Shown here one piece after another: positions 1-46,121 of a stretch of 64,000 bases of DNA. The notes under the pieces are model-generated. The model searched no databases and was not told where the DNA came from. It saw only the letters and a program-made list of their open reading frames with translations. The number at the start of each line of letters is the position of its first letter. The stretch's first letter is position 1. The stretch lies in assembly GCF_023278565.1 (NCBI RefSeq), contig NC_064679.1:5270001-5334000 (forward strand), written 5' to 3'. Source of the DNA: Colletotrichum lupini. Lineage: Eukaryota > Ascomycota > Sordariomycetes > Glomerellales > Glomerellaceae. The position numbers and the translations under genes were made by a program.

Positions 1-83
1 CGTCAACCCTCACCTACCACCACATTCCCCTCCTCCTCCACCATCCGTAATCACAAAGTTCGCACCCTCGGCGCATCGCAACC

Positions 84-22689: not shown

Positions 22690-25600
22690 ATGATGAAGAC
22701 CTCCAGGAACGGAAGCAATTCAAGTGCTGGCGGCGATACATACAAGCCTACCACTACTGGTACCAGCATGAAGAATCCTAAATCTGGCCCAAGTCGAGCA
22801 GACCCACGGTATGGTTCCCATGATGTCAAGAAAAAAGGGTTCTCGGATGTGCGCCAGGCGTCTAAGCGACCATTGCCCACGCAAAATGGCGACGGAACCT
22901 ACCCCTCAGAACTTACTCGGCCTACCATGGTTCAGAATCTGAAGGCCCTACAGGCCGCAGGTGTGTGAAAAACTTTGCCATAGACGAAGAATTTGAGCAG
23001 ATACTGACGGCGAGAGAAGATCTCAAGACACTCGTTCAGATCATCAAATCCAAGATCAAGAGGGAGAAGATCCAAGATGACAAAACCATGATCATGGAAC
23101 GGACAATTCAGATTGTTGCCAAGCTCCCACACAACTCTCGCCTACGAGAGCAACTGACGAACACTTTCATTGAGGAGCTCTGGGGGTCACTTGATCATCC
23201 TCCGATGCTTTATATGGGCGATGAATACAAATACCGTCAGGCCGATGGGTCTTATAATGTTAGTCGACTGGCACTGAACACTTATATACACGTTCTAACG
23301 AGAAGATTCACAGAATCCAATGCTTCCAAGGCTAGGAGCTGCTGGAGGGCCATATGCCAGATCTGTCAAGCCTCGTATTGTCACCCTGGGCGCTATGCCG
23401 GATCCTGGCTTGATCTTTGATGCCGTGATGGGGCGCACGAGCTACAAGAAACACCCCAACAACGTTTCGAGTATTCTTTGGTATTGGGCAACCATTATTA
23501 TTCATGGTTAGTAGACTTTCCCCGTGGGGACTCTGGGGACGTAAGTGTTCTGACGAATGGTAGACCTCTTCTGGACGGACTTCAAAGACGTGACGAAGTC
23601 CAAAACGTCCGCGTATCTTGATCTCTCGCCATTGTATGGAAGCAATCAGGAGATGCAAGATTCAATCAGAACATTTAAGGATGGCAAGCTCAAAGCCGAT
23701 AGTTTCGCTGATAAGCGTCTTATCGGAATGCCACCCGGAGTCTGTGTCCTCTTGATCATGTTCAACCGATTCCATAACCATGTGGCGGAGAATTTGGCTG
23801 CTATCAACGAGGGAGACAGATTCACACCGCCAAGCAAAAATCTCAACGAGGAGAAGACAGCTGCGGCTCTGAAGAAATATGACGAAGACTTGTTCCAAAC
23901 TGCGAGACTTGTGACATCTGGCCTCTACATCAACATCACATTGGTCGATTACGTACGAAACATCGTCAATCTGAACCGCACCAACACGACTTGGACACTC
24001 GACCCCCGACAGGAGGCTGGTATCGATGCCGGTACACCGGATGGAGCGGAGGCAGGCACTGGGAACGTCAACTCCGCTGAGTTCAATCTTTGTTACCGAT
24101 GGCATTCGTGCATCTCAGACAAGGACGATAAGTGGATCCAAAAGTTCTACGGCAAGCTCCTAGGTAACAAGGGCCAGATGTCCCCCCAGGAAATGGCCTG
24201 CGTTTTCGGGCAATTCGAGAAGTCTATCCCAGATGACCCTGGCATGCGTACTTTTGCAGAGTACGAAAGGGGCGAGGACGGAAAGTTCGACGATGACGAC
24301 CTTGTGGATTGCATCAGCTCTGCGATCGAAGACTGTGCTGGAGCGTTTGGAGCTCGAAACGTCCCTCAGGTTATGCGACCTGTTGAGATTATGGGCATCT
24401 TGCAAGGACGCAAGTGGAATGTCGCTGGTCTGAACGAGTTCCGAAAGCACTTTGGCCTCAAACCCCATGAAAGTTTCGAAGAAATCAACTCAGACCCCGC
24501 TGTCGCGGATCAACTAAGGAACCTCTACCAACACCCAGACTACGTTGAACTATACCCTGGCCTCGTCGCTGAGGAGGCAAAGACTCCCCTGACACCTGGC
24601 GTTGGCATTGCCCCCACATACACCATCTCTCGTGTCGTTCTCTCGGACGCTGTCTGTCTAGTTCGCGGCGACAGATACTACACTACGGATTACAACCCCC
24701 GGCACCTGACTCAATGGGGCTACAAGGAGGTTGACTATGACTTGAACGTCAATCATGGTTGTGTTTTCTATAAGCTGTTTCTCAGAGCTTTCCCCAACCA
24801 CTTCAAGGGCAATTCTGTTTATGCCCATTATCCCATGGTCATTCCGCCGGAAAACCAACAGATCCTCACGGATCTGGGAAGAGTCAATCAGTTTGATTTT
24901 GAACGCCCGAAACCCATTCCAACAAGGACCAACATCACGTCTTTTGGCGGTGCCAAGTACGTCTTGGACAGCCAAAGTCGGTTCAAGGTGACGTGGGACG
25001 AGGGATTGTCCTTCCTGATGGGCAAGGGTGGAAGCCGCTTCATGCTTTCCGGAGACACTGACTTTCACACGGGCCAGAAGAAGTGCATGAGTGCTCAACT
25101 CTACAAAGACGACTGGAATTCTCATGTTAAGAAATTCTATGCCGATATTACGGAACAGCTACTTCGCGAGAAGTCATACAAGCTTGCCGGTCAAACACAC
25201 GTTGACATCATTCGGGACGTAGGCAACATCGCTCACGTTCATTTCGCCGCCAGAGTGTTCAATCTCCCTCTGAAGACACACAAGAATCCCAAAGGCGTCT
25301 TCACTGAACAGGAGATGTATCAGATCTTGGCGGTAATCTTTGTCTGCATTTTCTTCGACATCGACCCAGCCAAGTCTTTTCCCCTTCGCCAAGCCGCGAA
25401 GGAGGCAGCGCAGTCGCTGGGCAAGCTTATTGAGACGAATGTCAAGATCACTACGAAGACAGGGCTTCGTGGGATCTTCACTGGCTCAGCAGACAAGCAA
25501 GACCCTCTCGCATTGTACGGAACCAACATGATTAAGGGTCTCGATAAGGCCGGTCTGAGCACCTACGATATCGCTTGGAGCCAGATTCTGCCTACATCGG

Positions 25601-26297
25601 GAGCGATGGTGCCGAATCAAGCTCAAGTCGTAAGTGGTCCGTTGGTGAACTCTTCATGCTATTGTTCTAATCCATACCCAGTTCGCTCAAGCGGTTGATT
25701 ACTATCTTTCGCCTCCGGGGTCGAAACACCTCGATCAAATTCATGCCGTTGCCAAGGCACCCACTACCAAAGAGTCTGATGCTGTGTTGCTTGGCTACGC
25801 CATGGAGGGCATTCGACTTGCTGGCACGTTCGGTTCTTACCGTGAAGCGGCCCAAGACGATGTTATCGTGGAGGACGGTGGTCGAGAAGTGCCTGTGAGA
25901 AGGGGAGATAAGGTATTTGTCAGTTTTGTGAGTATTCATACCGCCGACCGCAACTTGTGACCTCTCCTCTGATTGACATGACTTGCAGGTGTCCGCCGCC
26001 AAGGATGCGAACCACTTCCCTCACCCGGAGGAGGTCAACCCGCGGAGGCCGATTGATTCATACATCCATTACGGCCTTGGCCCGCACTCTTGCCTGGGGC
26101 GCGACGTAAGCCAGGTTGCTCTCACAGAGATGTTCAGAACGCTCTTCCGGAAGACGAATGTCAGGCGAGTGCCGGGACCCCAGGGACTATTAAAGAAGGT
26201 ACCAAGGCCTGGAGGTTTCTTTGTGTACTTGAAGGAGGATTGGGGCCAGATTTGGCCGTTCCCAGTTACCATGAAGGTGATGTGGGACGATGAATGA
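22690..26297 (+). CDS. Psi-factor-producing oxygenase / linoleate diol synthase (peroxidase-P450 fusion)
   Basis: Exons: 22690-22960, about 23017-23258, 23314-23506, 23564-25629, 25682-25927 and 25989-26297, giving about 1,108 residues. The N-terminal half is a haem-peroxidase/dioxygenase domain: NNPMLPRLGAAGGPYARS, distal IIIHD (about His235), NRFHNHVA, and YRWH (about Tyr413, His416), the catalytic tyrosine and proximal ligand of Ppo enzymes. The C-terminal half is a cytochrome P450: VPNQAQ in the I-helix (Asn about 920), EGIRL, and GLGPHSCLGRD with the haem-thiolate Cys about 1041. Such enzymes make 8-hydroperoxy and diol oxylipins from linoleic acid that control sporulation. The kept Cys and Asn/Gln argue for an active isomerase rather than a PpoC-like lone dioxygenase. 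The first junction is uncertain: the frame changes near 22961, and only a 56- or 59-base intron with non-typical acceptor (GAG or AAG) or a 23-base gap restores it. Confidence 0.9.
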
Positions 26298-28608
26298 GTT
26301 GCGTCGTCTACGGATACTCTACGGATACTATAGATCTGTGTTCCATGATATGACTCGGCGACGGATAGCTTGCCGACCGTGGAGAATGGAATGGAATTTT
26401 CCAATCAGGTTTCTTTTTACACGAATCAGTCAGCAACATTGACTTTTGGGTGAATGGAATGAATTCCACGCTGCTGTGAAAAATCGGGCTGCTTCAGCTG
26501 AGGCCGACCCTTCTCGGAAAGTATCCGTGGACCACCGTCACAAGTATCGGCATCTCCACCTGGCACCCCTGCATCGCCCTGGGAATTGAAGGGGGATTGG
26601 CGAAGGCCAGTTATTAGTGGCATTCTCTGTTTCGCCAGCACGGAAGAATAGTATGGAATCGCCAGTGAGCACATCATCCCTTGACAGTACAGCCGCGGTG
26701 GGCAGACGGTAAGACACAAATTTGGGCAAGTCTATCAGGGCCATCGTTGGAATTAGGCATATCTTAGATAGCAGAGAGTGTCGTTGTCTCATATGTTAAC
26801 AAGTATCCCTTCGCATGCGATACTGAGGGAGGAGAGCGGATGCCCAGCGCCGAGACAACTGCCGCGCGGCTTTGAACTAGTCGTGGATTTTTGATCTAGG
26901 CTTCAGAATGTTCTGACTTCTAACCTGGTACTGAATCTGTCAGTGATATTGGTGGTGTTCTTGCTATGCCTAGTGAGGAGGTGCAGTTCTATTGAAATGC
27001 ACGTGTTCCTCTTTCGTTGTTCGTGCGCTTACGAACTTCAAGACTTTGCATGCAAGCTAAGACTTCAGATCTGCTGGGACCGGATTGGATCATTGGGCCA
27101 GGTAGCTGGAAATCCCAGTTTCTGGATATATCCGTTCGTGGCACCCAGCATATCCGCCTGGAGGGGTCAGCAGTGAGGGGCCGACGCACGCAGCACGTAG
27201 CATCGGAAATTAAGGAGACACAAAGGCGGTGGCCCCAGCGTGCCTGGCGGTTGACAGTTTTAACAATCTAGGAACAACTTGACAGCCGGCGGCTTTGTGA
27301 ACGAGCAGCCCGTGCTGTTGGGCTGAGCTGACCAAATGATGCGCGCGGCCCATGGCACCCACTCCCACGAACACACGTCTATTTCCAACCACTTTCCTGG
27401 CCTCTCCCTTGGAAAGCGTGGGTGCCTTTCGGTGAGGAAGAATCAAGACCAAAAGAGCAAAAGTGAGACTGCGAGAGAATCCCTGATTTGGGCAGTGGGA
27501 TGCCGGAGGTGGGTAAGTGTTTTCCCCCCATATCCCCCTTTCTGCTATCATCTCTTTGTAACAACCGCAGTCCAATTGGATAAGAGGAGTCGAGGACTGC
27601 TTTTGGATCATTCTTGGACCTCGGACGACGGAACCCCCACTTGCGGCCCTGATGTTGGCCAGTGATGTTTGGTTGCGTTTATTAACTTCGGACGGCGTTC
27701 GCGTTTTTTCTGTTTCGCATAGCCAAACAACCCTGCCGTTTTAATATATCTGGGGTACAGCAACCAACCGCGCTATCCACTCAAGCGCGTGGACCATCAA
27801 AGACCTTGCAGATGGAAGAGGACGAGAAAAAAATTAGACTGGAAAAAGTCTAGACGCCCCTAGCTGGCTGAGGGTCAGCCTCGCAGACCCATGTTCATCC
27901 CAGGGGGCCATGTGTTGCAAGCGCATCGCCCAGCCTGTCATGTCGTAGAAGGCACTTAATTCCGGGCCGTAGCTCCGGCACTGCTTGCCTAGCTCGGCCG
28001 GGTCTGGATCGTGCTCCGGGATGGCCCTCCGAGCGGACGTCACCCGACGGGCCTCGCTCTTCTATCCGAATGACTCGTTTTACTATTGAACATTCCCCTA
28101 TTCGCTCAAGAGCGTCAATGGCAGTGGCTCATCTTTCCATCGTCAGGCGATGATAACAACCTACATCACTATACCCACGCTGCCGGGTCCCGACAATTCC
28201 CACAATCTTGGCCGGAGCAGTGCGGATCTACTCCGTACAACACCAGATACATTTTACTGACCCCCTCCAAATGGGGCTGGAAACTGGGGGTAGCCATGGC
28301 ACCTGGAAGCCGTCTGTCCCGATTTGGGTCTTGCATAGTCATGGGTTGTTGCTGAAGGCAAGACATATAATGGTTGGCACACCTCCTCCCACGATGTCTA
28401 TCTCTTTTTGGCCCTTCTCTCCAACAACTTCATTTCTGTTCCCATTTGCGCTGGTTGCTCTTCCACTTTCTTTTGCCCATCTGCGACGGGTGTACACTCT
28501 CTTTGACACTCTCGTGTTCCATTCATTTCCCACCAGACGCATTTTCCGCATCCCGACGACATTTTCACACATTCACTTCTAGGTCATCAAACCTCACAAT
28601 CATTCACC
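26298..28608. other. Long intergenic spacer before the CDH gene
   Basis: This 2.3-kb region has normal composition and no recognisable gene; overlapping frames at 27210-27665 and 28208-28961 look random. The promoter of the cellobiose dehydrogenase gene lies at its right end, with a weak CATATAATGG near 28366 and a long C/T-rich leader (28380-28560), typical of secreted-enzyme genes. Confidence 0.55.
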
Positions 28609-30987
28609 ATGTTCAAGTCCCTTCTTACCACGGGGCTCTTGGCTGCGGCTGCCGTAGCCCAGCAGACAACCTCATATGTCGACTCCGCAACTGGCATCAC
28701 CTTCCAGAGATACACCGAAACCTCTGGATTCTCGTTTGGTGTTGCCCTGCCTTCAACTGTTGGCAAGGACTTTATCGGCCAGATCTCTGCTCCCATCACC
28801 GCGGGATGGGCCTCCGTCTCTCTGGGCGGTCCCATGACCAACAAGCTCCTTGTTGTTGCGTGGCCCAACGGAGACTCTATCCAGACTTCCATCCGAAAGG
28901 CGTCAGGATACTCGAACCCCGACGTCGTGACCGACTCCGGCATCACTCTCAAGCCTATTGAGTCTGGCACCTCCGTCAACGCCACTGCCTTCACTTACAC
29001 CTTTGTGTGCGAGGGATGCATTACCGGTGACACAACCACCTTCACTGGCACTTCTGATACCACCACCTTTGGCTGGGCTTACTCGACAACTGCCCTGTCC
29101 GACACCACGAGCGCTTCTGTCGCTCTCAACTACCACGGTGCTGGATTTGGTCTTTTCGGTGCAAACCTCGCCTCTGCCAAGTCCGCCGATTACGCGACTT
29201 GGGCCGCGAAGGCCTCCGATGCCGTCTCCACTCCCGGCACTGGCAACGGAACTTCCCCGTCCGTCCCTGCTAACATCACCACCACGATTTCCAACACTAC
29301 CTACGATTACATCGTCGCCGGTGGCGGTGCCGCTGGTCTTATTGTTGCCGAGCGTCTGGCCGAGTCCGGAAAGAGCGTCCTTCTCCTTGAGCGTGGAGGA
29401 CCTTCTTTGGCGTCCAGCGGTGGCAAGGCTACCGTCGACTGGAACAGCACCGTCACCCAGTACGACGTCCCTGCCATGGGCTACTACCTCTCGACCGCCA
29501 AGGAGACCAGCGAGTACTGCACGGACACCGCTTCCCAGGCTGGCTGCATTCTCGGTGGCTCTACCATGGTCAATGCCATGATGTGGGTTAAGCCTCCCGC
29601 GCACGACTTCGACGACAAGTGGCCCGCGGGCTGGAAGTGGAGCAGCGTTGAGGAGTCTGCCAACAAGCTCTACGAGCGAACCCCGGGAACCATCCTCGCC
29701 AGCAAGGACGGAAAGCGTTACGACCAGGGCGCCTACGATGTCATGTCCCAGTGGCTGGCCGGCAACGGCTTCAGCGAGGTCGACGCTCTTGCCGAGCCCG
29801 ATAAGAAGGAGGCAGTCTTCACACACCCTCCTTGGTTGATCGAGAACGGTATGCGCGGCGGTCCCGTCCGTGACTACCTGCCTCTTGCCCAGGCTTTGCC
29901 CAACTTCAAGCTGCAGCTTAACGCCAAGGTCATCCGTGCCATCCGCAACGGCACCACCATCTCTGGTGTCGAGATTGAGACTGCTACCAACGTTCGCCAG
30001 ATCATCAATCTGAAGTCCGGCGGCGCCGCCATCCTGGCAGCTGGTGCTCTCTCTTCCCCTCGTATCCTGTTCAACAGCGGTATCGGCCCCAAGGAGCAGA
30101 TCCAGACTGTTCAGAACGGAACCGCTCAGGTTACCCTCCCCGCTGAGGCCCAATGGATCGACCTCCCCGTCGGCCAGAACCTCAAGGACCACCCCATCTT
30201 CACCGTCAACTTCAAGACCAAGTCCACCCTTAACTCTTTGGCCAGCACTGCATTCACCGCCCCTAGCCAGACCGACGTCGACCAGTTCGCCCAGGGATCC
30301 GGACTTCTGAGCCAGGCTGGACAGCGCCTGAACTTTTGGACCAGTGTCGAGGGCTCTGATGGTGGCAAGAGATACGTCCAGGGCACTGTCAACTCTCCTG
30401 CCAACGACACTATCCGCGTCAAGGTCTACCTCACCCACGGTCTCACCTCTGTCGGCGCTCTCGGCATTTCTGCCGACGGCTCCACCAAGCTCACCACCGA
30501 ACCCTACCTCACCACTACTGAGGATAAGGAGGCTATCACCAGCTTCATGAACCAGCTTATCCAGTACGCCTCCAAGTCCAACAGCACCCTGACTCTGTCC
30601 GGCAACGTCACCGCCGAGAGCCTCATTTCCGAGCACACCACCGGCAGCCACTTTGTCGGCAGCGCTGTCATGGGCTCCACCAACGACGGAAACAGCGTTG
30701 TTGATACCAAGACCAAGGTCTGGGGCACTGACAACCTCTATGTCGTCGATGCTTCCATTCACCCTGACTTGCCCACCGGTAACACCCAGGCTATTGTCAT
30801 GGTTGCTGCCGAGCACGCTGCTGCCCAGATCCTTGGAGGAGCTGGAAGCGCTACCAACTCTGGCTCTGAGTCTAGCTCCGGCTCCGGCTCCGGCTCTGGC
30901 TCCGGCTCTGGCTCGACTGGTTGCAAGCGTTCTGTCAAGCGCCTCGAACGCCTTCAGCGTTTCCGTCGTGCTCACCACAGCTTCTAA
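28609..30987 (+). CDS. Cellobiose dehydrogenase (cytochrome + GMC flavin domains)
   Basis: One intron-free frame of 792 residues. A signal peptide (MFKSLLTTGLLAAAAVA) is followed by a haem-b cytochrome domain (AA8) to about residue 205, with likely axial ligands Met76 in GGPMTNKLLVVAWPNG and His176 in NYHGAGFGLFG. A Thr/Ser/Pro linker leads to the GMC flavoprotein domain (AA3_1): FAD motif GGGAAG (238-243), GCILGGSTMVNAMMW, His681 in TGSHFVGSAVMG and Asn725 in PTGNTQA, the catalytic pair. The enzyme oxidises cellobiose and feeds electrons to lytic polysaccharide monooxygenases outside the cell. There is no cellulose-binding module. Instead a Ser-Gly repeat (about 755-769) leads to a strongly basic tail (CKRSVKRLERLQRFRRAHH), which is unusual. 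The preferred codons and lack of introns suggest high expression. Confidence 0.95.
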   Translation: MFKSLLTTGLLAAAAVAQQTTSYVDSATGITFQRYTETSGFSFGVALPSTVGKDFIGQISAPITAGWASVSLGGPMTNKLLVVAWPNGDSIQTSIRKASGYSNPDVVTDSGITLKPIESGTSVNATAFTYTFVCEGCITGDTTTFTGTSDTTTFGWAYSTTALSDTTSASVALNYHGAGFGLFGANLASAKSADYATWAAKASDAVSTPGTGNGTSPSVPANITTTISNTTYDYIVAGGGAAGLIVAERLAESGKSVLLLERGGPSLASSGGKATVDWNSTVTQYDVPAMGYYLSTAKETSEYCTDTASQAGCILGGSTMVNAMMWVKPPAHDFDDKWPAGWKWSSVEESANKLYERTPGTILASKDGKRYDQGAYDVMSQWLAGNGFSEVDALAEPDKKEAVFTHPPWLIENGMRGGPVRDYLPLAQALPNFKLQLNAKVIRAIRNGTTISGVEIETATNVRQIINLKSGGAAILAAGALSSPRILFNSGIGPKEQIQTVQNGTAQVTLPAEAQWIDLPVGQNLKDHPIFTVNFKTKSTLNSLASTAFTAPSQTDVDQFAQGSGLLSQAGQRLNFWTSVEGSDGGKRYVQGTVNSPANDTIRVKVYLTHGLTSVGALGISADGSTKLTTEPYLTTTEDKEAITSFMNQLIQYASKSNSTLTLSGNVTAESLISEHTTGSHFVGSAVMGSTNDGNSVVDTKTKVWGTDNLYVVDASIHPDLPTGNTQAIVMVAAEHAAAQILGGAGSATNSGSESSSGSGSGSGSGSGSTGCKRSVKRLERLQRFRRAHHSF
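30874..30915 (+). repeat. Ser-Gly coding hexamer repeat in the CDH gene
   Basis: About seven copies of a hexamer TCCGGC/TCTGGC encode an uninterrupted Ser-Gly run near the C-terminus of the cellobiose dehydrogenase. As a short in-frame minisatellite it may vary in length between strains. Confidence 0.85.
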
Positions 30988-33179: not shown

Positions 33180-34397
33180 AGTCTCTATTATGTAAGTTAT
33201 AACCATAGAACTAATACTTTATTCTATTTAGCGCTTAGTCAGTTTAATAGGGTCCCGCTCGCTTACTAGCAGAGGCGCAGCTTGCGGCCTACTAGCTTGC
33301 TTATATCTAGCGCTTACACGTACTACTATTAAACCAAGCTTTAAAAAAAAACTAAAGCTTAGTATAAAGGAACCTCTCCGTAAGATATTACTCAACCTTT
33401 TCCGTAAGACACGGAAAAACTTCAAAAAGTTTATAATAATACAAGTCTAAGAGTACTTTATATAAAGACTATTCTAATCACTATTTATAACTCCTAACAA
33501 CTCTATCTCATCCCTCTTTATAAGTCTCTTACCCCAGAATAATAACTTTGCCACTTTTATAAGAATTCTACTTCTTTACCCACAATAAAGATTACTCTAT
33601 TCGCTATTACTCTTCTTACTTCGCTAGCATCCGCTAGAAAATTCGTTTTATTTAATAATACTAACTATAATAGCGCTTCTCATAGGTCGATTTTTTTATT
33701 TTCCTATATAAATCTTTTTTTTTAAAAAATGTTTTTTTAAGGGAAAACCTAGTATAGCGGAGTTAATTTTTAAAAAGCGCCGTAGGGCTTATAAAAAGAG
33801 AGCGAGTATAGTTTATAAGTAGTATAGCATAATTACTCTATTTTAATACGTAATAATAATAGTGAGTACACTATAAAAAAGTAATATAGTAATCGAACGT
33901 CCCGTATTTTATAAATTATAGTATTATAACTACTTAACTAGCCCTATAAGTAATTATATTTTAGCTAATAATAGCTTATAATTATAATTATTTATAAGTA
34001 TAACGGCCGCTTTAATAAACTACTAAACCTATATTCTCTTATAAAATTAGTACGTTTTAATACCCTAGTCCCTAAAAATAAGCTTTATAAATAAATAGTT
34101 ACTAACTAGCCTTTTACTAAGTATTAAAAAAAAACGCTTATTACGAACGCTAAATAACTAAAATAATAAGGTTAGTTTCTCTTTTCGGGGCCCCCTAGCT
34201 ACGCTTAATATAGTAAACGGGGCTCTAAGGAACGAGAAATAAAAAACTAAAAACTATAGGGGTACTAATTAGCCTAGTTAATAAGCTACTTTTATAATAT
34301 GAGTACCGTCCCTAGGGATAATAGCCCGCTTAACCCGTAATATAATTTTTTTAACTACCGCTCGTAATACTAATAGCTCTTATAAACTTATAATAAT
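33180..34397 (+). repeat. RIP-mutated sequence in the position of rDNA spacer / 5' ETS
   Basis: About 1.2 kb directly before the degenerate 18S gene and after the compartment boundary. By position it should be the intergenic spacer and external transcribed spacer of the rDNA unit, but these regions are not conserved and I cannot confirm it by sequence. The first 150 bases (33230-33310) are less damaged than the rest. Confidence 0.45.
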
Positions 34398-36193
34398 TAC
34401 TTAGTTAATTTTACTTATAATTATATACTTATTTTAAAAATTAAGCTATATATATCTAAATTTAAATAATTTTATTATAAAACTACGAATAGCTTATTAT
34501 ATAAGTTATCGTTTATTTAATAATACCTTATTATATAGATAACCGTAGTAATTCTAAAGCTAATATATACTAAAAACCTCGACTTCGGAAAAAGTATATT
34601 TATTAAATTAAAAACTAATACCCTTCGGGGCTCATTAGTAATTTATAATAACCTCTCGAATTATATAGCCTTGCGCCGGTAATAGTTTATTTAAATTTCT
34701 TTTTTATTAACTTTCAATATTAAAATAGTATTTTAATATAGTTATAATAGGTAATAGAGGGTTAAGGCTCGACCCTAAAAAAAGAGCTTAAAAAACGGCT
34801 ATTATATTTAAAAAAAGTAATAAGTATATAAATTACCCAATCTTAACACGGGGAGGTAATAATAATAAATACTAATATAGGGCTCTTTTAGGTTTTATAA
34901 TTAAAATAAGTATAATTTAAATCCCTTAATAAAAAACAATTAGAGGGTAAGTCTAGTACTAATAACCGTAGTAATTCTAGCTCTAATAGCGTATATTAAA
35001 GTTATTATAATTAAAAAGCTCGTAATAAAACTTTAAGCTTAGCTAACTAGTCCGCCTTACTACGTATATTAGTCTAGCCGGGCCTTTCTTTTTATAAAAC
35101 TATATACTTTTTACTAAGTATACTAAAAAAATAGGACTTTTATTTTAAAAAAATTAAAGTACTTTAAGTAGGCCTTTACTTAAATATATTAATATAAAAT
35201 AATAAAATAGGACGTATAATTCTATTTTATTAGTTTCTAAAACCGCCGTAATGATTAATAAAAATAGTCGGGGGTATTAGTATTTAATTATTAAAAATAA
35301 AATTCTTAGATTTATTAAAAACTAATTACTATAAAAGTATTTACTAAGAATATTTTTATTTATTAAAAACGAAAGTTAGGGGATCGAAAACGATTAGATA
35401 TTATCGTAGTTTTAATTATAAACTATACTAACTAGGGATCGGACGATATTATTTTATAACTCGTTTAGTATTTTATAAAAAATTAAAATACTTAGGCTTT
35501 AAGAGGAGTATAGTTATAAGGCTAAAACTTAAAAAAATTAATAAAAAAGTATTACTAAGGGTAGAGCTTATAGCTTAATTTAACTTAATATAAGAAAACT
35601 TATTAAGTTTAGATATAATAAGAATTAATAAATTAAGAACTCTTTTTTAATTTTATAAATAGTAGTATATAGCTATTCTTAATTAGTAAAGTAATTTATT
35701 TACTTAATTACGATAATAAACGAGACCTTAATTTATTAAATAGCCTATATTATTTTAATAATACGCCGGCTTTTTAAAAAAACTATTAGCTTAAGTTAAT
35801 AAAAATTTAAAATAATAATAGGTTTATAATACTTTTAAATATTCTAAGCCGTACGCGCGTTATATTAATAAAACTAGCGAGTTTTCTTTTAACTAAAAGG
35901 CCTAGGTAATTTTATTAAACTCCGTCGTACTAAGGATAGAGTATTATAATTATTACTTTTTAATAAGGAATCCCTAATAAGTATAAGTTATTAACTTATA
36001 TTAATTATATCCCTACCCTTTATATATACTACCCGTTACTATTACTAATTAAATAGTTTAATAAGGCTTTTAGACTAGCTTAGAGAGGTAAGTAACTACT
36101 ACTTAGGGCTAAAAAGTTATTTAAACTTAGTTATTTAAAACAAATAAAAATTATAATAAAGTCTCCGTTAGTAAACTAATAGAAGGATTATTA
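34398..36193 (+). pseudogene. 18S rRNA gene, full length, RIP-mutated
   Basis: About 1,796 bases that align end to end with fungal 18S rRNA once C-to-T and G-to-A changes are allowed. The 5' end TACTTAGTTAATT corresponds to the universal TACCTGGTTGATT. Other landmarks are TTATCGTTTATTTAATA (34505), CTTCGGGGCTC (34624), ACACGGGGAGGTA (34847), the 519-region as CTAATAACCGTAGTAATT (near 34958), GCCGTAATGATTAATA (35244), GTTAGGGGATCGAAAACGAT (35375) and the 3' end AGAAGGATTATTA for GCGGAGGGATCATTA. The length equals a normal intron-free gene, so mutation was by substitution, not deletion. It cannot yield a functional ribosome. The functional copies must be elsewhere. Confidence 0.95.
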
Positions 36194-36374
36194 CTAAGTT
36201 ATTATTTTATAACCCTTTATAAATATACTTAATTATTATTTTAATAAATAAGGAAAACTTCTTACGGGCCTCCCCTCTTAGCGCCGGCCCTTATTACGAG
36301 GACGGGGCGCCCGCTAAAAAAGACTAAACTCTATTTATATAACGTTTTTTTTAAATAATATAAATAAATAATTA
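36194..36374 (+). other. ITS1, RIP-mutated
   Basis: Between the 18S end and the 5.8S start. It retains blocks such as ACGGGCCTCCCCTCTTAGCG and ACGGGGCGCCCGC and ends TAATTAAAACTTTTAATAAC. The arrangement and retained GC blocks recall ITS1 of Colletotrichum species (a recollection, not a search result). The CC/GG/CG parts survive because RIP prefers CpA. Confidence 0.85.
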
Positions 36375-36533
36375 AAACTTTTAATAACAGATCTCTTAGT
36401 TTTAATATTAATAAAAAACGTAGTGAAATATAATAAATAATATAAATTATAAAATTTAGTAAATTATTAAATTTTTAAATATATATTACGCCCGCTAGTA
36501 TTTTAATAAATATACTTATTTAAGCGTTATTTT
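36375..36533 (+). pseudogene. 5.8S rRNA gene, RIP-mutated
   Basis: About 159 bases, the normal length. It begins AAACTTTTAATAACAGATCT (for AACTTTCAACAACGGATCT) and shows ACGTAGTGAAATATAATAA, ATTACGCCCGCTAGTATT and ends TTTAAGCGTTATTT (for TTCGAGCGTCATTT). Practically every CpA and TpG of the conserved gene is changed. Confidence 0.92.
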
Positions 36534-36689
36534 AACCCTTAAGTACTACTTAGTTTTAAAGCTTTATAATATATATAAGCCCTTAAAAATAATAATAGAC
36601 CCTCCTAAAACCTCTTTTACGTAATAATTAATATTTTATACTAAGATCTAAAGGGACTCTTATTATAAAACCCCTAAATTCTTTATAAA
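36534..36689 (+). other. ITS2, RIP-mutated
   Basis: Spacer between 5.8S and 28S. It retains GACCCTCCTAAAACCTC, ACGTAATAATTAATATT and AAAGGGACTCTTATTATAAA, which fit Glomerellales ITS2 (GGACCCTCCCGGAGCCTCC and GGAGGGACTCTTGCCG) after C-to-T and G-to-A change. Confidence 0.82.
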
Positions 36690-39600
36690 TTAACTTCGGA
36701 TTAAGTAAGAATACTCGCTAAATTTAAATATATTAATAAATAAATAAAAAAAATTAATAAGGATTACCTTAATAATAATAAGTAAAGTAGTAATAGTTTA
36801 AATTTAAAATTTAGCCCTAGGCCCGAGTTATAATTTATAAAAAATACTTTTAGCACAGTACTTTTTAAATTCCTTAAAACGGGACGCTATAAAAAATAAG
36901 AGCCCCGTATAATTAAATACTAAGTTTTTATAAAGCTCTTTTAATAAGTTAAGTAGTTTAAGAATACTACTCTAAATAGGAGGTATATTTTTTTTAAAAC
37001 TAAATATTAATTAAAAACTAATAGTATATAAATAGAATAATTAAAAAATAAAAAATATTTTTAAAAAAGGGTTAAATAGTACGTAAAATTATTAAAAAAG
37101 AAGTGTTTATAACTAGACTTATATTTAATAAATTACCTAGCTCTCGTAGCTAGGGTATTTCGCTAGTATAAGCTAGTATTAGCTTATTATTAAGAATAAA
37201 AGCTTTAAAAACGTAGCTCCTCTTAGGGAGTATTATAGCTTATTATATAATACCCTTTAGTAAGCTAAAGTACGTACTCCATAAGGATATTAGCGTAATA
37301 ATTATTAATAACCCGTTTTGAAATACGGACTAAGGAATTAACCTTATATATAAGTATTTAAGTATTAAACCCCTATATATAATAAAAATAAACGTAAATA
37401 AGAGCTTCGATATATTATTAACTAATCTTAATATTTTTAAATAGATTTAAATAAGAGTATATAGGGTTAGACTTAAAAAAAAGTAAACTATATATATATA
37501 GGGTAAAGCTAAAGAAAACTCTAGTAAAAGCTCGTAGTAGTTCTAATATATAAATCGATTATTAAATATACGTATAGGAGTAAAAAACTAATTAAACTTT
37601 TTAATAACTAGTTTTGACTAAAGTTTCCCTTAGGATAGTAGTATTAAACTTAGTTTTATAAAATAAAGCGAATAATTAGGGACTCGGGGGCTATTTTTTA
37701 TTTTTATTTATTTTTAAACTTTAAATATATAAGAAGCCCTTATTACTTAGTTAAACATAAGTATTTAAATATATTAATACTAATAGGCTATTTTTAATAA
37801 ATAGAACTAACGATATAAAATAAACTAAACGCGAGGTTAAGGTATTAGAATAGTTATTTATTAAATACTATAAAAAGTATTAATATATTTTAATAATAAG
37901 ATAGTAACTATACAAATCGGAGTTTACTAAGGACTATATAATAACTTACTTATTAAATATACTAGCTCTAAAAATAGATAGTACTTAAATAACTTATTTA
38001 TACCTTACCTTTAATATAAAAATAATATATTAAAGAGTAAGCAGACGTAAAAATTAATAATAAAGCCTAGGGCATAAGCTTAAATAAAACGGCCTTTAAT
38101 ATAAATCTTAGTAATAATAATAAATACTTTAATAAGAACTTAAAGGACCGAAATAAAAAAAGGTTCTATATAAATAATAATTAGATATAGGTTAGTTAAT
38201 CCTAAATTATAAAAAAGGTTTATTTTAAAAGGGTACTTATACCCTATATAATAAAAAGGAAGCTAGTTAATATTTTAGTATTTAGATATAAGTTTTATAT
38301 AATAACGTAACTAAATATAAAAATAATAGCAGGGGCCCCGGGTAGAGTTCTCTTTTTTTTTTAACGGTCTATTACTCTAAAATTAGTTTATTTAGAGCTA
38401 GGGTTTAATAACTAAAAGAGCTTAGTACTTTTATTAAGTCCAGTACGCTCTTAACATCTTTTAAAAATCTATAAAAAAGAATAATTCTTATACTAAGTCG
38501 TATTTATAACTATAATAAGTCTCTAAAATAAATAGCCTCTAGTTAATAAAATAATATAAATAAGAGAAGTTAATAAAATAAATCCATAACTTTAAAATAA
38601 GGATTAGCTTTAAGGGTTAGGTACGTTAAGCTTTAAGTAGACGGCTTAGGAATAAGTTATTACTAGCTAAGTAACCGGCTAAAGGCTTCTAATACTTAGG
38701 TTTTAACGCCCTTAATAAACTTCGGCCGTCCGGTATATAATTAATAACTAACTTAGAACTAATATAAATAAAAGGAATTTAACTATCTAATTAAAATATA
38801 GTATTATAATAGCTAAAAAGTAGTATTAACGTAATATAATTTCTACTTAATACTCTAAATATTAAAATAAAAAAATTTAACTAAGCGCGAGTAAACGGCG
38901 GGAGTAACTATAACTCTTTTAAAATAGCTAAATACCTCGTTATTTAATTAGTAACGCGTATAAATAGATTAACGAGATTCTTACTATTCCTATTTACTAT
39001 TTAGCGAAACTATAGCTAAGGGAACAGGCTTAGTAAAATTAGTAAAAAAAGAAGACCTTATTAAGCTTAACTCTAATTTAATATTATAAAAAAATATAAA
39101 AAGTATAGAATAAGTAAGAGCTTTAGTACTAATAAAATACTACTACTCCTATTATGTTTTTACTTATTTAATAAAGCGGGGCTAGATTTATATCTAATTT
39201 CTAGTTTTAAAATCCTTTATAAACCGACCTGGGTTAAAAATATTATTAAATAGGGAGTTTAGCTAGGGCAGTATATTTATTAAACTATAACGTAAATATC
39301 CTAAAAGGGGCTTATAAAAAATAGAAATCTTTAATAAAATAAAAAGGTAAAAGTCCCTTTAATTTTAATTTTTAATATAAATATAAACTATAAAGGTATA
39401 ACCTATCGATCTTTTAGTCCCTCGAAATTTCAAACTAAAGGTATTAAAAAAGTTATTATAAAGATAACTAGCTTATAATAGCTAAGCGTTTATAGTAACG
39501 TCGCTTTTTAATTTTTTAATATCGGCTCTTTTTATTATATTAAAACAGAATTTAGTAAGTATTAGATTATTTACTTATTAATAAGGAACGTAAACTAAGT

Positions 39601-40010
39601 TTAGACTGTTATAAAATAGGTTAGTTTTACCCTATTAATAACCTCGTTATAATAATAATTAAGCTTAGTATAAAAAGAACCGCTTATTTAAATAATTGGT
39701 TTTTATAACTATCTAACTAGGTAGTACTATAATACTACTATTTACTAAATAATAACTAAACGTTTCTAAATTAAAATCTATACTAAAACGCAATAATACC
39801 TCCTGTACGTATAAATAAATACGAATAAGCTCCGGCTTAGTATTTTAATAAGTAATTCCTTTACTACTCTTAAAATAAATAATAATGTTTCGTAAATTAT
39901 AATTTTAATACGAGCGGGGTTAAATCCTTTATAAACGACTTAAATATATAAAAGGGTCTTATAAATAATAAAGTAGCCTTATTATTACGATTTACTAAGG
40001 GTAAGCCCTT
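36690..40010 (+). pseudogene. 28S rRNA gene, full length, RIP-mutated
   Basis: About 3.3 kb. The start TTAACTTCGGATTAAGTAAG matches TTGACCTCGGATCAGGTAGG. Inner landmarks: ACGGGACGCTATAAA (36879), AGGGTTAAATAGTACGTAAA (37067), CCCGTTTTGAAATACGGACT (37312), and near the end AAGAACCGCTTATTTAAATA with AATTGGTTTTTATAACTA, CTGTACGTATAAATAAATAC and GTAGCCTTATTATTACGA. The 3' end is placed near AAGCCC at about 40010; the exact base is uncertain. No group I intron or deletion is visible. All changes I compared are transitions of the RIP type. Confidence 0.93.
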
Positions 40011-41894
40011 TTTTACCTCAATTTCTTTATAAACTTTAATAACCGCGGGCCATAAGGGTATAAAATATTTTACTAACTTCGGTAGTAATAATAATAATAA
40101 TAATAACTACCCGGGCGCTCCTAAAATAGCTAAGTACTATATCGCGTCGCTAAGTACTCTAAAATAAAAAACGGCCGGCTAGGCTAAAAATATTACGTAA
40201 TACCTAAGTACCCTAAAATAAATAATACGGAGCTAGTCGTTTCTAAGTATACTAGGGCCGCTCTAAGTACCCTAAAATAAGTACTATAAGTAGCTTAAAA
40301 AGGCCCCGAGTACCCTAAAAAAAATAATACCACTAAGTACCCTAAAATAGGCACTATAAGTACTTTTAAATAGGTATAGTAAGTACCCTAGGGCAAGCGC
40401 TATAAGGGCCCCAGGGCCGGCCTAAATAGTTTAAAACGAAGCTTTAAGTATTATAAAAAGCGGTTAGAGGGCCTAGGTACCCTAAAAGAGAACTTAATAA
40501 GAATAAATAAGATTATTTAGGAAATAAAAACTAAACTACGTACTAAGTAAGAGGGAATACGTTAATTTTAACTTAGAATAGTTTTAGAGAATAAGTACGT
40601 TTCTACCTTTTTAAGGTACGAAAAAGGGAATTTAATAATAAAAAGCTAAGTAGAGCGTTTTTTATTAAATAGGGGGGGTTTATTCTCTATATACTATAGT
40701 ACTACGCTATATAAGAACTTTATAATATAAAAGTATAAAAAAAGAAAGAAAAAATAGAAATTTACTACGTAAGTTAATAGTAAAATATATAAATAAAATA
40801 CTTAGAGCTTTTATAAAACGAATTAAATACTAATTATTAAAGCTTCTTATATTAAGTACATAAATAGTATTTAAAAAAAGAAGAATAAAATATAAAAAGA
40901 TTATAGTAATAAAAACGGAGTTTTTTAAGTTTATTTTAAATATCAGTAGAGTATAGAGCTAATTATAAGATTGGAAGCTTAAAAGAGAGTTTCTTTAAAA
41001 GTATAATATTAAATATGTAGAATTAGGCTATTGGTGCTTTAGAATAGACGCTATAAATACTTAAAAACCGCCCTAGGTACTTAAAAATAGACCGTCTAGG
41101 TACTCTAAAATAAGTACTACTAAGTACTTTAAAAAGTACTTTATATAATATAAAAGTTATTTAGGCGCGCATAAATATACGTAATTAACTATTATAAAAG
41201 GGAACTTAAAATAAATTAAAACGCTACTATATTAAATTAATAAATATAATTTCATATAAAGAGGGAAAAAATAAATTAATAAGTAGAATTTAAGGTACTA
41301 GGCTTTCAAACTTAATAGTTTAGTAATTACGTAACCCGTAAGGGGTTTATTAAATACTTAAGGCCTAGGTATTAAGAGACCTAGTACTTAGTACCGTAAT
41401 ATTACCCCCCCCCTTTAGTATAAAAGGCGCTATTTATAGTACTTAATTCCCTATTTAAATTCTCTATAATTACTTTTTATAAACCTATATTAAGGGTAGC
41501 TATTACGTTATTATTAGCTTATAATAGGGCCGCGCTATTACTAGTTATTACTTCTATTTATAATAAGAAGTTTTTTAATAATCCCGTAGCCGTTAAGTAT
41601 TACTTATTAAACGTTTATAGGGCCGCTAGTATATTATAAAAGCTCTTTACGTTATATTATGTAAAGCTTTTATTATATCCCTTTTAATTAGCTTAGTGAT
41701 ATAACTTACTATACTATATTTATAATTTAATTACTTATAAAATCCTATACTTAGGCTTATTAAAATTATAAGAAATTTGTAGCGGGGGGTCTTAGTATTA
41801 TTTAAATAGGGGGTCTTTTATAGCCTTTTTTAGCTTATTTAAATAGAAAACTAAGTAGGCTTTACTCTTTATAAGTAATTTTATAATTTATATA
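40011..41894 (+). repeat. rDNA intergenic spacer with CTAAGTACCCTAAAATA subrepeats
   Basis: Directly downstream of the 28S relic. Between about 40120 and 40490 a unit resembling TAAGTACCCTAAAATA recurs roughly ten times at irregular spacing of 25-60 bases, and again four times at 41040-41135. Irregular subrepeats are common in rDNA spacers. A run of nine C occurs near 41405, followed by TATAAAAGGCG. Assignment to the intergenic spacer is by position. It ends at the Fot1-like element. Confidence 0.7.
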
Positions 41895-43755
41895 ACGTAT
41901 ATAATAAGCGAGTAAAATAAATAAGCGAGTAAAATATAAAATCATAACGGTAATATAAACGTAATTAAAACGCCCCGCTAATAATTTTATATTAATTTAA
42001 ACTATTTAATATCCTCTTTTTTAAATACTTTTTTAGTAATTTAATATATTTACGTATTATAACTAGTATTCTTATAGACGTTATATTATTATTAACTCGT
42101 CTTAGTCCTTAGTTAATAACTACTACTCTAACGCGTTTCTTTTTTAATTTAGGTTATTACCTCTTTTTATAACTAAAGGTCTTCCCCATTAGTTATTATA
42201 AAACTTCCTCTTTATTTAAAACGTATTTTCTTAGCCCTCTTATAGTACCTAAGTAAGTTATTTTCTTTTTAAAAACTTTAATACTCCGATTTTAATAAGG
42301 TAATTTAATATATAAATCCTCGCGCCCTTTTTAATAAATATTTAATAGTTTTAATAATTAAAGTTCGGGAGCTATTTGAATAATAAGCAATTCGATTTTT
42401 AATAAGTTATAATTATAAAGATATTTTTATAAAGTTATTTAGTATTTAAAAAGTTTAAGCTAGGGGTATTATTAAAAAGGATCCTAAAAGTATTAAAGTA
42501 TATAACTTTAAATTAAGCTTAAATAATATACTTTCTATACTTAAAAATATAAGCCCGGCTCTTTTAAATCCTTTTTAAATATTCTTTTTTATAATTACTT
42601 ATATAAAAACCCTATAAAACGTGGGGAAGATATCCTTTTTTATAATATAAGTATTACCCCGTTATATTCTTTTTTTAATTTTTTAGTTATATACCGTTTT
42701 TAAAAGTTTAAAATATTTAATATTTAAGGGCTATAATAAATAAAATAAATAAGCTAGTATATAAAGGGTAATAATATTATTTTTCTTATAATATAATTTA
42801 AAATCTATAGAGTAGTAACCTTTGTATTTAGTAATAACAAGGAGGTAATATTAACTTTTTATACGTAGTTTTGTTTACTATTTAAAGTATTTTACTTAAT
42901 TTAGGCCTTTTTTATTTATTATCTATCCGTTTTTAAACGTTATAATAACCTAATTATATAATAGACCGGATTTTATATACTAAGTAGAGAGGTAATATTT
43001 ATTTATAATAATTATATATAGCGGGACGCTATAGCTTAACGAGCTAATAACCTAGATAATTATAACTTATTTATAATTACTAAGCTATGTTATTTTTGTA
43101 TTTTAATACCTTTTTATACTCGTAACGACTATTCTAAATATAATCTAGCTTATTATAAAGCTAGTCTCGTCGAAGTTATAAATATCGGACTTTATAATAC
43201 CGTATTTTATAATTATATTTATTACGAAGCGAAACTATATTTTAATCGCGTCTAGACTTTTATATTAAGCCCTCTTATAATCGTACTTATAAAATAAGCG
43301 CGTTTAGAGCTATAATTAGTACTTAATAAAGTTAAAAACTTAGTACTTTTTAACGGGGGGCGCGTTATAATTAGCGAGTAGTTAATTAGTTATATTCTTT
43401 ATATTATTCAAGCGGGGAAGAACTGATTAGGAATTTAGATTAAAAATATATTTAACTAGCTTTTTTTTTTAAGTAGTATTAAATTCTACGAATTAAAAGT
43501 AATATTATAATATAATAATATTCTTTTTAGTTTATAAATAAGTATAACGTAGCTAACTAAATAGATCTTAGTTATAGCCCGAGTAATTAATTAAAAGTTA
43601 TTTTAAATAGCTTAGAGAGTAAGCTAAATCTAAGACGTTTTATTTAAGTATATTATAATTTATTAGAGAAGAAAAGTACCCGGTCGCGTCGGAGTATTAT
43701 AGTTACGATTTTATATTTCACTTACTTATTTATTTTACTCGCTTATTATATACGT
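41895..43755 (-). mobile_element. Fot1/pogo-like Tc1-mariner transposon, RIP-mutated
   Basis: The ends are inverted repeats beginning ACGTATATAATAAGCGAG, with the AAGCGAGTAAAATA unit doubled, and match for about 55 bases. TA lies outside both ends (41893-41894, 43756-43757), the expected target duplication. On the minus strand the sequence near 43162-43185 still reads DIYNFDET, followed by text that fits GFMMG and then YSVPLYIII and KYYLST, which is the DDE_1 transposase core of Fot1/pogo elements. The frame is broken by many stop codons of RIP type. At 1,861 bp it is the normal size of a Fot1-like element. It is inactive. Confidence 0.88.
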
Positions 43756-43757
43756 TA

Positions 43758-44192
43758 TTACTTAAATTAGTATTAATAAGGAACTAATATACTAGCGTTA
43801 TAAACTAATATACTAGCGTCGCTCTTATATTAATATTACTATTCTATTTTTTAATTAGTTTAAAAAAAATAGTACTTTTTTATAAAAGTAATAAGGGTAA
43901 CTATATTAATATAGCTATTTTTATTATATTTTTCAACCTAAGCCTTAATTTAAGATTTTTAAAAATACAAATATTATTATAACTTATTTACTCGTTTAGA
44001 ACCGTTATATTACCTATTTAAGATTTATAAATTTTAAATTAGTTAATAATATAAGTTTTTATAAATTTTAAATAAGTAAAGCTTTTTTTATTATATATTT
44101 AAAATATATAAAAAATAAATTATAATAACGTCTACCTAATTACTTGTCAACGTAGTTATAATAATTTATTATTATTATAAACTATTTTTTAG
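43758..44192. repeat. RIP-mutated sequence, unidentified
   Basis: Lies right of the Fot1-like element. It contains two close copies of AACTAATATACTAGCG (near 43783 and 43806). It may be spacer DNA interrupted by the transposon, but no decisive match was seen. Confidence 0.4.
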
Positions 44193-44285
44193 TCTGGCGA
44201 GACAGTGTGAGTATCCACTGATACCGTATATTAATACCGTATAAACGACATCGAGAATCGCCCGAGCAGCCAGCAAAGGTAGAAA
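44193..44285. other. Short island not mutated by RIP
   Basis: About 90 bases with normal CA and TG content (GACAGTGTGAGTATCCACTG, CCCGAGCAGCCAGCAAAGG) inside the RIP block. The direct repeat ATAAACTATTTTTTA lies on both sides (about 44181 and 44300). It looks like single-copy DNA caught between two repeats. Confidence 0.7.
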
Positions 44286-46121
44286 TAAAAAACAAATAAA
44301 CTATTTTTTATTAGCTTTATTCTTTTTAAATATTAAGTTATATTAACTATTTATTTATATAATTCCTTATTATCCTCCCCTTACTAAGAACGCTAAACTA
44401 GCTCCTTATTTATTACTAAAATAAGCTTAATATTTAGCTTTAACTTAGTTAAAAATTTTTTTTTATAAACCTAATTAAGGTTACCTTATTTTTATTTTTA
44501 AATAAATAGCCTCGCTTTTTATTATTTATATTTTAATTATTATAAATAATACGGGCTTAACTAATTAACTAGCTTTTTCTTCAAATAAAACTAGTTATAA
44601 TAAAATAAGCTATATTATATTTTTTAGCTTATTATAAAAGAATATAATAATTTTAAAATTAAGGATTTAATAATATAGATTTAAAAAAAATATTTTTTAA
44701 AAACGCTATTAAGAATATACTTTTTACTTATTAAAAGTAGTTAAATTTAATATTTTAAAATAGATCTTATCATAATATAAAATACTTAGCTTAATTAAAA
44801 TAATATAAGTTAAATTATAAAATCCGAGGGGGTTTAAAACTAATTTCTTATTAAATAGTATTACTCTTTTTATAAACCGGCTTTATATCTTAATTAAAAT
44901 AAAATATTTTAAAAAAAGTATTATTTAAAGTTCTTTTAAATATTTAAAGCGAGTACTTATATACTCTTAGCTTATAAATATCTCGTTTTTTATATAAGCT
45001 TAATAAAAACATAGCTCTTAATTATTAATTATATTCTATATAACGTTAATAAGCCGATATAAATAACTAAGATTATTTAAAAAATAAGTTTTAATATTAT
45101 TATTATTTAGCTTAGTATTAAAAGTAATATAAGTACTAAAGTCTTAGTATTTTTAAATAACATAACGGGCTTATTATATTTTTAAAAATAAGTATATTAT
45201 ATAGAGGTATTAAAAAATTAAGTATTAGTTATTAAACTCTTTATAAAACTTAGTCTAGGCTTTTTTAAAAATATACTTAATTTTAATAAAAATAATAAGT
45301 TTTTATATTATAAAAACCTTATAATATATATAAAGAGGGGGCTTATTAATAAGCGTATTAATATAAGCCTTATCCTTATTACTTAATATGGTTATTATTT
45401 ATATTAATAACTAATATTTCTTATTTTTAAACTTATTATTATTATTATTATAACTACGGTCGTTAACCTATTTTTATTTAGCCCTAAGTATAATATTAGA
45501 GTTAATATAATAAATATAAAACTATTATTAAATATTTAAGAACTATTTATTTAGTATAACTTTTATTTACTTATTATAATTTATAATAATAATAATAATG
45601 TAACGGACTAAGTATTAGTTTATAAATTAATAAATACTTATTAAGAATAACTAAAAGCTTTTTAATTCCTTATTATTAATAAGGCTAAACGCGGCGTTAT
45701 AAATAGATTTAAAATAAGTATATTTAGTAATTTAAAAAAAAGAAAGCTTAAAACGATTAATATTATAAATATTATTAAAACTAATTATTTTAAAGAATTG
45801 CTTTTATATTTAAAAATAATAAAAAAAAGGTCTAAATAAAACTAACAAAGCGGTTTAGCTCGTTATCTATTTACTTAATAATATTTAGAATCCCTTACTT
45901 ATTAAATAGCTTAATTAATACTATTATTAATAAATATCTATTTAATCTTTCTTAATTAATACGGGCTTTGATATTATAAATATCCCGCTAAGTAAATAAG
46001 GACTTTAAAAACTATTTTTAAATAATAGTACGTATATTATAAGCCCGAATCTTAACTCGTTAGTTTATAATTTTAATAATATCCTTAATTACTTTAATAA
46101 GCTTATAATATAAAAAGTATA
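44286..46121. repeat. RIP-mutated repeat, unidentified
   Basis: About 1.8 kb of TA-rich DNA. I could not find terminal repeats or recognise transposase or reverse transcriptase motifs in either strand. Its start next to an unmutated island and its end at the MITE suggest a discrete element of DNA-transposon size, but this is inference. Confidence 0.4.

What the first reader, a model, noticed from the sequence alone, without database searches (positions are those of the whole stretch)
34398..40010. A complete ribosomal DNA unit destroyed by RIP, next to normal genes
The 18S, ITS1, 5.8S, ITS2 and 28S are all present in order and at normal length, yet carry C-to-T and G-to-A changes throughout. 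Working rDNA in the nucleolus organiser is normally spared by RIP, so a full unit mutated this deeply means one copy was displaced, or sits at the edge of the array, and was treated as a foreign duplicate. It may have gone unnoticed because gene finders and rRNA models tuned to normal composition fail at this divergence.
Basis: partly seen in the sequence, partly recalled or inferred. Interest (0 to 1): 0.92.

Follow-up and report, generated by a model that had tools for sequence, protein, structure and literature searches.

The report
RIP-killed remnant of ribosomal DNA array
A complete fungal ribosomal gene unit beside normal genes is riddled with C-to-T and G-to-A changes; it is likely a dead piece of the ribosomal gene array whose edge lies about 125 kb away on the same contig, split by a retrotransposon from a second dead piece, and dead ribosomal copies of this kind are already known from other fungi.

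Summary
18S, 5.8S and 28S lie in order at 34398-40026. Against an intact unit of the same genome, 825 of 833 substitutions in 2,939 columns are C>T or G>A, and 337 of 346 CpA/TpG sites are mutated: repeat-induced point mutation (RIP). Rfam models do find 18S and 28S, so the "unnoticed" clause fails, and RIP-mutated rDNA is published for several ascomycetes, including a Colletotrichum. What is added is place and history. The contig ends inside the tandem rDNA array; the array's innermost full unit is RIP-mutated too, and the next is intact where readable. Purine/pyrimidine mapping shows rDNA from 33681 to 41189. It stops at an LTR element whose partner LTR meets a second rDNA fragment 53.6 kb away at the same spacer position, with a 4-bp overlap. 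The two are very likely one piece of array split by the insertion, not one displaced copy. The left end coincides within 7 bp with the end of an inverted fragment at the array edge, which suggests a 132-kb inversion (less certain). 18S and 28S queries found nothing longer than 109 bp on other contigs. Verdict: a new member of a known kind, with an unusually clear history.

The parts
33681..34397 (+). rDNA intergenic spacer, 3' part, upstream of 18S (unit positions ~7698-8413); left end of rDNA homology
   Evidence: R/Y-coded match to the unit and base-level junction; strict homology from about 33686
34398..36193 (+). 18S rRNA pseudogene, full length, RIP-mutated
   Evidence: RF01960 662 bits, model 1-1831; C>T 196/388, G>A 272/475
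36194..36375 (+). ITS1, RIP-mutated
   Evidence: between 18S and 5.8S; C>T 30/62, G>A 28/48
36376..36529 (+). 5.8S rRNA pseudogene, full length
   Evidence: RF00002 16.6 bits, model 1-154, below gathering 42
36530..36690 (+). ITS2, RIP-mutated
   Evidence: between 5.8S and 28S; C>T 24/52, G>A 32/42
36691..40026 (+). 28S rRNA pseudogene, full length, RIP-mutated
   Evidence: RF02543 1366 bits, model 1-3401; first 646 bases vs intact C>T 86/154, G>A 107/189
40027..41189 (+). rDNA intergenic spacer, 5' part; lacks about 480 bp of the 88-bp subrepeat block and, relative to the edge unit, a further 261 bp; right end of rDNA homology at unit position 7518
41190..41401 (+). long terminal repeat of the element that interrupts the rDNA; its partner copy lies at C6:5364658-5364810, directly before the second rDNA fragment
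   Evidence: direct repeat at both ends of the insertion, 79.7% over 158 bp (score 249 vs shuffled mean 40); separate dispersed copies of ~212-216 bp
41402..41894 (+). internal part of the same dispersed element, cut off by the next repeat
   Evidence: long dispersed matches run to query position 705
41891..43665 (.). second, nested dispersed repeat
   Evidence: at least 3 dispersed copies at 81-82% over ~1.8 kb (40 of 671 candidates scored)
43775..46000 (.). third dispersed repeat, high copy, continuing beyond the queried stretch
33200..33680 (.). AT-rich, RIP-like flank with no match found elsewhere; border between normal genes and the RIP tract
   Evidence: [quoted passage not shown] no match for 33301-33685 other than itself

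Best explanation
The window holds a RIP-mutated rDNA unit that, with a second fragment 53.6 kb further on, was very likely one stretch of the tandem rDNA array at its inner edge, cut apart by an LTR retrotransposon. Shown: the substitution spectrum and context are those of RIP, and all rRNA regions examined are hit alike; that it makes no working rRNA is predicted, not tested. Shown: the tandem array lies on the same contig, its edge about 125 kb away; its first full unit is mutated in the same way, and the next is intact where readable. Shown: the unit ends at spacer position 7518, one LTR of a dispersed element starts at the next base, the partner LTR ends just before a fragment that starts at spacer position 7515, and the two rDNA pieces share a G>T change and a 1-base deletion absent from the edge unit. 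Inferred: units at the array border, or cut off from it, lose the protection from RIP (or the homogenisation) that keeps inner units intact, so they are mutated over sexual cycles, and transposons then pile up in them. Inferred with less certainty: the unit was first in line with an inverted rDNA fragment at the array edge, and a 132-kb inversion (C6:5303681-5435693) moved and flipped it.
For: RIP: 825 of 833 substitutions C>T/G>A; CpA/TpG 337 of 346 mutated vs 487 of 1,135 other C/G sites. Array: intact 18S/5.8S/28S matches in tandem to the contig end at 5502741, with parts withheld; edge unit at C6:5441148 has 500 of 500 substitutions C>T/G>A in 2,940 columns; its downstream spacer from 5447953 is 99.94% identical to the intact one over 1,609 bp. 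Locality: of 11 genome-wide 18S matches 10 lie on the last 200 kb of C6, the other is 50 bp on C8; of 6 28S matches 4 lie there, the others are 69 bp (C1) and 109 bp (C7). Split by LTR element: junctions at unit positions 7518 and 7515; LTR pair; dispersed copies; shared changes. R/Y mapping control: 0 hits >=40 in each of the reversed and complement-only controls against 56 and 148 for the true strands.
Against: The unit has fewer non-RIP changes (4 of 1,176 columns) than the fragment it should once have adjoined (20 of 1,174) and than the inverted fragment (5 of 282), so neither the present nor the un-inverted order gives an even gradient of age. In one search only 19 of 35 dispersed matches start exactly at 41190; 16 start 4-19 bp earlier. 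The first ~54 bp of the second LTR did not align. The flanks at the two supposed inversion ends show no mutual similarity, which fits an inversion but does not prove it. Two spacer breakpoints lie only ~185 bp apart, so a fragile spot in the spacer could also produce coincident ends. 35 kb of the array region is withheld.
Confidence: 0.8

Rival explanations
1. A single rDNA unit was copied or moved out of the array (for example as an excised circle opened in the spacer) into the array's flank, and RIP then mutated it as an unprotected duplicate.
For: Both ends of the unit lie in the spacer only ~180 bp apart on the circular map, as a linearised one-unit circle would; displaced rDNA is mutated by RIP in other fungi (PMC5555474, PMC2621366).
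Against: The right end is matched to within 4 bp by the left end of a second rDNA fragment across an LTR element, and the two share a G>T change and a deletion. The relics found lie only in the array's own flank.
Confidence: 0.13
2. The spacer has a fragile or target site near unit positions 7515-7704 where breaks and insertions recur, so the coincident ends are independent events and no inversion took place.
For: Four of seven rDNA ends fall within about 190 bp of an 8.4-kb unit.
Against: Ends coincide pairwise to 4 and 2-7 bp, tighter than a 190-bp hot spot needs; for the 7515/7518 pair the LTRs give an account of their own.
Confidence: 0.3
3. Ordinary AT-biased decay or methyl-CpG deamination of an old pseudogene, without RIP.
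For: The unit is AT-rich and looks non-functional.
Against: Only 2 reverse transitions and 6 transversions in 2,939 columns; the main target is CpA/TpG (97-98% mutated) rather than CpG (57-58%).
Confidence: 0.01
4. Assembly artefact: error-rich or misjoined rDNA reads near the end of an array.
For: The contig ends in the array, a place prone to misassembly.
Against: Errors would not be 99% C>T/G>A in CpA context; the unit lies about 190 kb from the contig end, between single-copy and dispersed sequence.
Confidence: 0.02

Closest known systems
RIP-mutated terminal and non-array rDNA repeats of Stagonospora (Parastagonospora) nodorum (PMC2621366, PMC3017866; passages seen)
   Same: Protected tandem array with one RIP-mutated repeat at its terminus; RIP-mutated non-array copies; order genes - RIP-mutated repeats - mutated terminal repeat - protected array.
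   Different: There the non-array copies are described as scattered through the genome; here the relics found lie in the array's own flank, and a likely cause of the separation (LTR insertion) can be read from the sequence.
rRNA pseudogenes of filamentous ascomycetes, including Colletotrichum graminicola and Neurospora crassa (PMC5555474; text parts 1-4 of 6 read)
   Same: 18S-5.8S-28S units with C>T/G>A changes, CpA/TpG preference, G>A usually above C>T, ITS and IGS also hit.
   Different: That paper had little information on chromosomal place and called it important; here one unit is placed relative to the array.
Edge-located rDNA pseudogenes of humans and wheat (as cited in PMC10462631; passages seen)
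   Same: Copies at array edges escape homogenisation and decay.
   Different: The passages seen do not ascribe them to RIP.

Membership tests
RIP-mutated sequence | Substitutions almost all C:G to T:A, on both strands | tested here: met
   359 C>T and 466 G>A of 833 substitutions
RIP-mutated sequence | CpA/TpG preference | tested here: met
   337 of 346 CpA/TpG sites mutated, 487 of 1,135 other C/G sites
RIP-mutated sequence | Duplicate of more than ~400 bp and more than ~80% identity in the genome (rule as given in PMC5555474) | tested here: met
   Present identity is 71.7%, but apart from C>T/G>A 2,931 of 2,939 columns agree with an intact unit, and intact units are there in tandem
RIP-mutated sequence | Made by the RID/DIM-2 pathway in the sexual cycle | tested here: inconclusive
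   Two strong DNA_methylase (PF00145) loci with open frames of 1351 and 765 aa, and one weak (26.5 bits); identity as DIM-2/RID not tested, their DNA could not be fetched
rRNA pseudogene (45S unit) | 18S, 5.8S and 28S in order at normal length but mutated in conserved parts | tested here: met
rRNA pseudogene (45S unit) | Not transcribed or not in ribosomes | not testable with these tools
   needs RNA data
Remnant of the tandem array (rather than a single displaced unit) | More than one unit in tandem, same orientation, contiguous apart from insertions | tested here: met
   Unit runs to position 7518; beyond the LTR element the next piece runs from 7515 through 18S position 467, same strand
LTR retrotransposon insertion | Direct LTRs at both ends and a short target-site duplication | tested here: met
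   LTR copies at 41190-41401 and C6:5364658-5364810 (79.7%); 4-bp overlap of unit positions 7515-7518. The first ~54 bp of the second LTR did not align; reverse transcriptase or other genes of the element were not sought
132-kb inversion | Both breakpoints join the same two ancestral neighbours | tested here: inconclusive
   Ends at unit positions 7698-7703 and 7704 in opposite orientation; no comparison strain available

The most novel reading that the evidence does not exclude
The inner border of this nucleolus organiser is a fold-back: an inverted rDNA block (C6:5435694-5437750, the window unit and the second fragment, in that order; about 11 kb) once lay head-on against the forward array. 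Being inverted or cut off, it lost RIP protection, was killed, filled with retrotransposons and finally carried away by a 132-kb inversion, so that the flank of the array records successive losses of its edge units.
Probability: 0.4. Interest if true: 0.5.

Novelty: new member of a known kind. Interest (0 to 1): 0.35.

Why it matters
How the working rDNA array escapes RIP is an old open question, and PMC5555474 says that locating functional and mutated repeats on chromosomes is important for it. Here the step from mutated to intact rDNA lies between two adjacent tandem units, within one spacer, and further dead pieces lie in the array's own flank. This locates where protection or homogenisation ends and gives a testable history. 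It also warns that AT-rich rDNA copies can mislead ITS or 18S surveys.

Tried and rejected
A simple conveyor, in which distance from the array equals age, was considered and rejected: the nearer fragment has more non-RIP changes than the farther window unit.

An LTR element at the left end of the unit as well: the flanks at 33.68 kb and C6:5435693 looked alike by eye, but alignment gave score 54 against shuffled mean 44, s.d. 5.4, maximum 65; rejected.

Early BLAST ends of the second fragment (5365003 or 5364972) were too short; R/Y mapping moved the left end to 5364811.

The exact RIP border of the edge unit could not be set closer than C6:5446777-5447953, because the intact counterpart is withheld. 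Counting edge-only changes against the window unit there did not help, since the rate is about the same on both sides of 5447953.

Naming the species was not attempted beyond recall of the ITS. No fungal relatives are held, so no comparison strain could be examined.

Papers: PMC5555474 outline and parts 1-4 of 6; passages only of PMC7493409, PMC4994206, PMC2621366, PMC3017866, PMC6710886, PMC11943440, PMC9073679, PMC13068351, PMC10462631. The N. crassa genome paper and Perkins 1986 were seen only as cited in these. Literature searches: each showing at most 20 listed rows; in those listings and passages I saw no report of an LTR-split RIP-mutated rDNA remnant, but most subscription papers are not held.
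Full report
Observation. Rfam finds full-length 18S (34398-36193) and 28S (36691-40026) at gathering score and 5.8S (36376-36529) only below it. From 18S to the first 646 bases of 28S the window was aligned to an intact unit of the same genome: 2,939 columns with 359 C>T, 466 G>A, 2 reverse transitions, 6 transversions and two 1-base gaps. The context is that of RIP: CpA 155/160 and TpG 182/186 mutated, against 57-58% for CpG and 21-54% for the rest. The fraction mutated does not differ significantly between 18S, ITS1, 5.8S, ITS2 and the start of 28S (p 0.14), so no purifying selection is visible there. The rest of the 28S could be compared only with the mutated edge unit. The finding's refuter (chance similarity, or many transversions and indels) is not met.

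Place. The window is C6:5270001-5334000 of a 63.4-Mb assembly in 12 contigs. C6 ends at 5502741, inside a tandem rDNA array with a unit of about 8.41 kb. Stretches of that array, 35 kb in all, are withheld and read N; they include most of the intact 28S. Going outward from the chromosome body the order is: normal sequence to about 33.2 kb of the window; the window unit; a 53.6-kb stretch whose parts queried are dispersed repeats; a 1.36-kb rDNA fragment (C6:5364811-5366174); 69.5 kb of mixed AT-rich stretches and gene islands; an inverted rDNA piece (C6:5435694-5437750); a forward 28S piece from 5437751; a full unit with 18S at 5441148; and the intact units from 5449561. The 18S and 28S queries found no match longer than 109 bp on other contigs, within the limits that the search states.

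The array edge. The full unit at 5441148 shows 500 C>T/G>A changes and no other substitution over 2,940 columns, with 135 of 160 CpA and 174 of 186 TpG sites mutated. Its downstream spacer from 5447953 on is 99.94% identical to the intact one over 1,609 bp. The step from mutated to intact thus lies inside one spacer, between 5446777 and 5447953; it cannot be set closer because the intact counterpart is withheld.

Ends of the window unit. RIP leaves purines purines and pyrimidines pyrimidines, so the tract was mapped in R/Y letters. True strands gave 56 and 148 hits of score 40 or more (many of them between spacer subrepeats), the reversed and complement-only controls none. In unit coordinates (1 = first base of 18S) the window unit runs from about 7698 round to 7518. 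The second fragment runs from 7515 through 18S position 467, and the inverted piece ends at 7704. At 41190, the base after position 7518, a dispersed element starts: 19 of 35 dispersed matches begin exactly there, 16 begin 4-19 bp earlier. Its first 212-216 bp also occur as separate matches (5 of the 39 other rows, where 40 of 223 candidates were scored). The same sequence lies in direct orientation at C6:5364658-5364810, ending at the base before the second fragment (79.7% over 158 bp; score 249 against shuffled mean 40, s.d. 5.7); the first ~54 bp of that copy did not align. Unit positions 7515-7518 occur on both sides, as a 4-bp target-site duplication would. The two rDNA pieces also share a G>T change and a 1-base deletion that the edge unit lacks. 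The simplest reading is one run of tandem rDNA, longer than a unit, split by an LTR retrotransposon into which further elements were nested.

A likely inversion. The window unit starts at 7698-7703 on the plus strand, and the inverted piece at the array edge ends at 7704 on the minus strand. Turning C6:5303681-5435693 round would join them. By a rough estimate of mine, two unrelated ends would fall this close about once in 500 pairs, and about six compatible pairs exist, so chance is near 1%; a breakage hot spot is the stronger rival. The flanks at both ends are single-copy where tested and not alike.

Against the reading. Non-RIP changes are 4 of 1,176 columns in the window unit, 20 of 1,174 in the second fragment, 5 of 282 in the inverted piece and 0 of 1,176 in the edge unit. 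Neither the present nor the un-inverted order gives a smooth gradient. Exchange with array units before final isolation could explain it, but this was not tested.

Mechanism. Reported elsewhere and seen here in passages: arrays in the nucleolus organiser escape RIP, copies outside do not, and in S. nodorum the terminal array repeat is mutated, from which a finite range of protection was inferred (PMC2621366, PMC3017866, PMC5555474). Edge copies are also said to escape homogenisation in humans and wheat (PMC10462631). Inferred here: edge or cut-off units lose that cover and are mutated in sexual cycles. Two strong PF00145 loci (open frames 1351 and 765 aa) are compatible with the enzymes of RIP, but their identity was not tested.

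Verdict. The feature is real and is RIP. As a kind of thing it is known. Its clear place and readable history make it a useful example, and the pattern speaks to an open question, so interest is moderate.

Noticed in passing
L013:8438-9355 (-), L016:719-1702 (-), L015:2964-9149 (+), L013:5242-6624 (+), L013:154-2436 (-), L011:2667-5249: Gene islands between the second rDNA fragment and the array hold open frames matching TRI5 (trichodiene synthase), Tri3 acetyltransferase, NRPS domains (a 2062-aa frame), a P450, ABC transporters and GH43-CBM6 (8 of the 16 frames listed there were scanned): what looks like a secondary-metabolite region next to the rDNA array.
   Followed up: partly
C6:5437750-5437751 (L016:7750-7751): Direct head-on junction of inverted (ending at unit ~5551) and forward (starting at unit ~4053) rDNA at the array's inner border.
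   Followed up: partly
L022:118-637 and L017:8070-8589; window 41093-41095: 88-bp spacer subrepeats in 5.9 copies in the intact spacers; about 480 bp of this block is missing from the window unit, and no 88-bp array is found there.
   Followed up: partly
   Followed up: no
window 28507-30984 and 23554-25695: Genes beside the RIP tract: a cellobiose-dehydrogenase-like frame (CDH-cyt plus GMC oxidoreductase) and a frame with an animal-haem-peroxidase domain.
   Followed up: no
C6:5449790 (L017:9790): The intact 18S of the unit at 5449561 lacks one base present in the edge unit, the window unit and the second fragment; two other intact units give an 18S one base longer, so it may be a real variant or an assembly error.
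   Followed up: no
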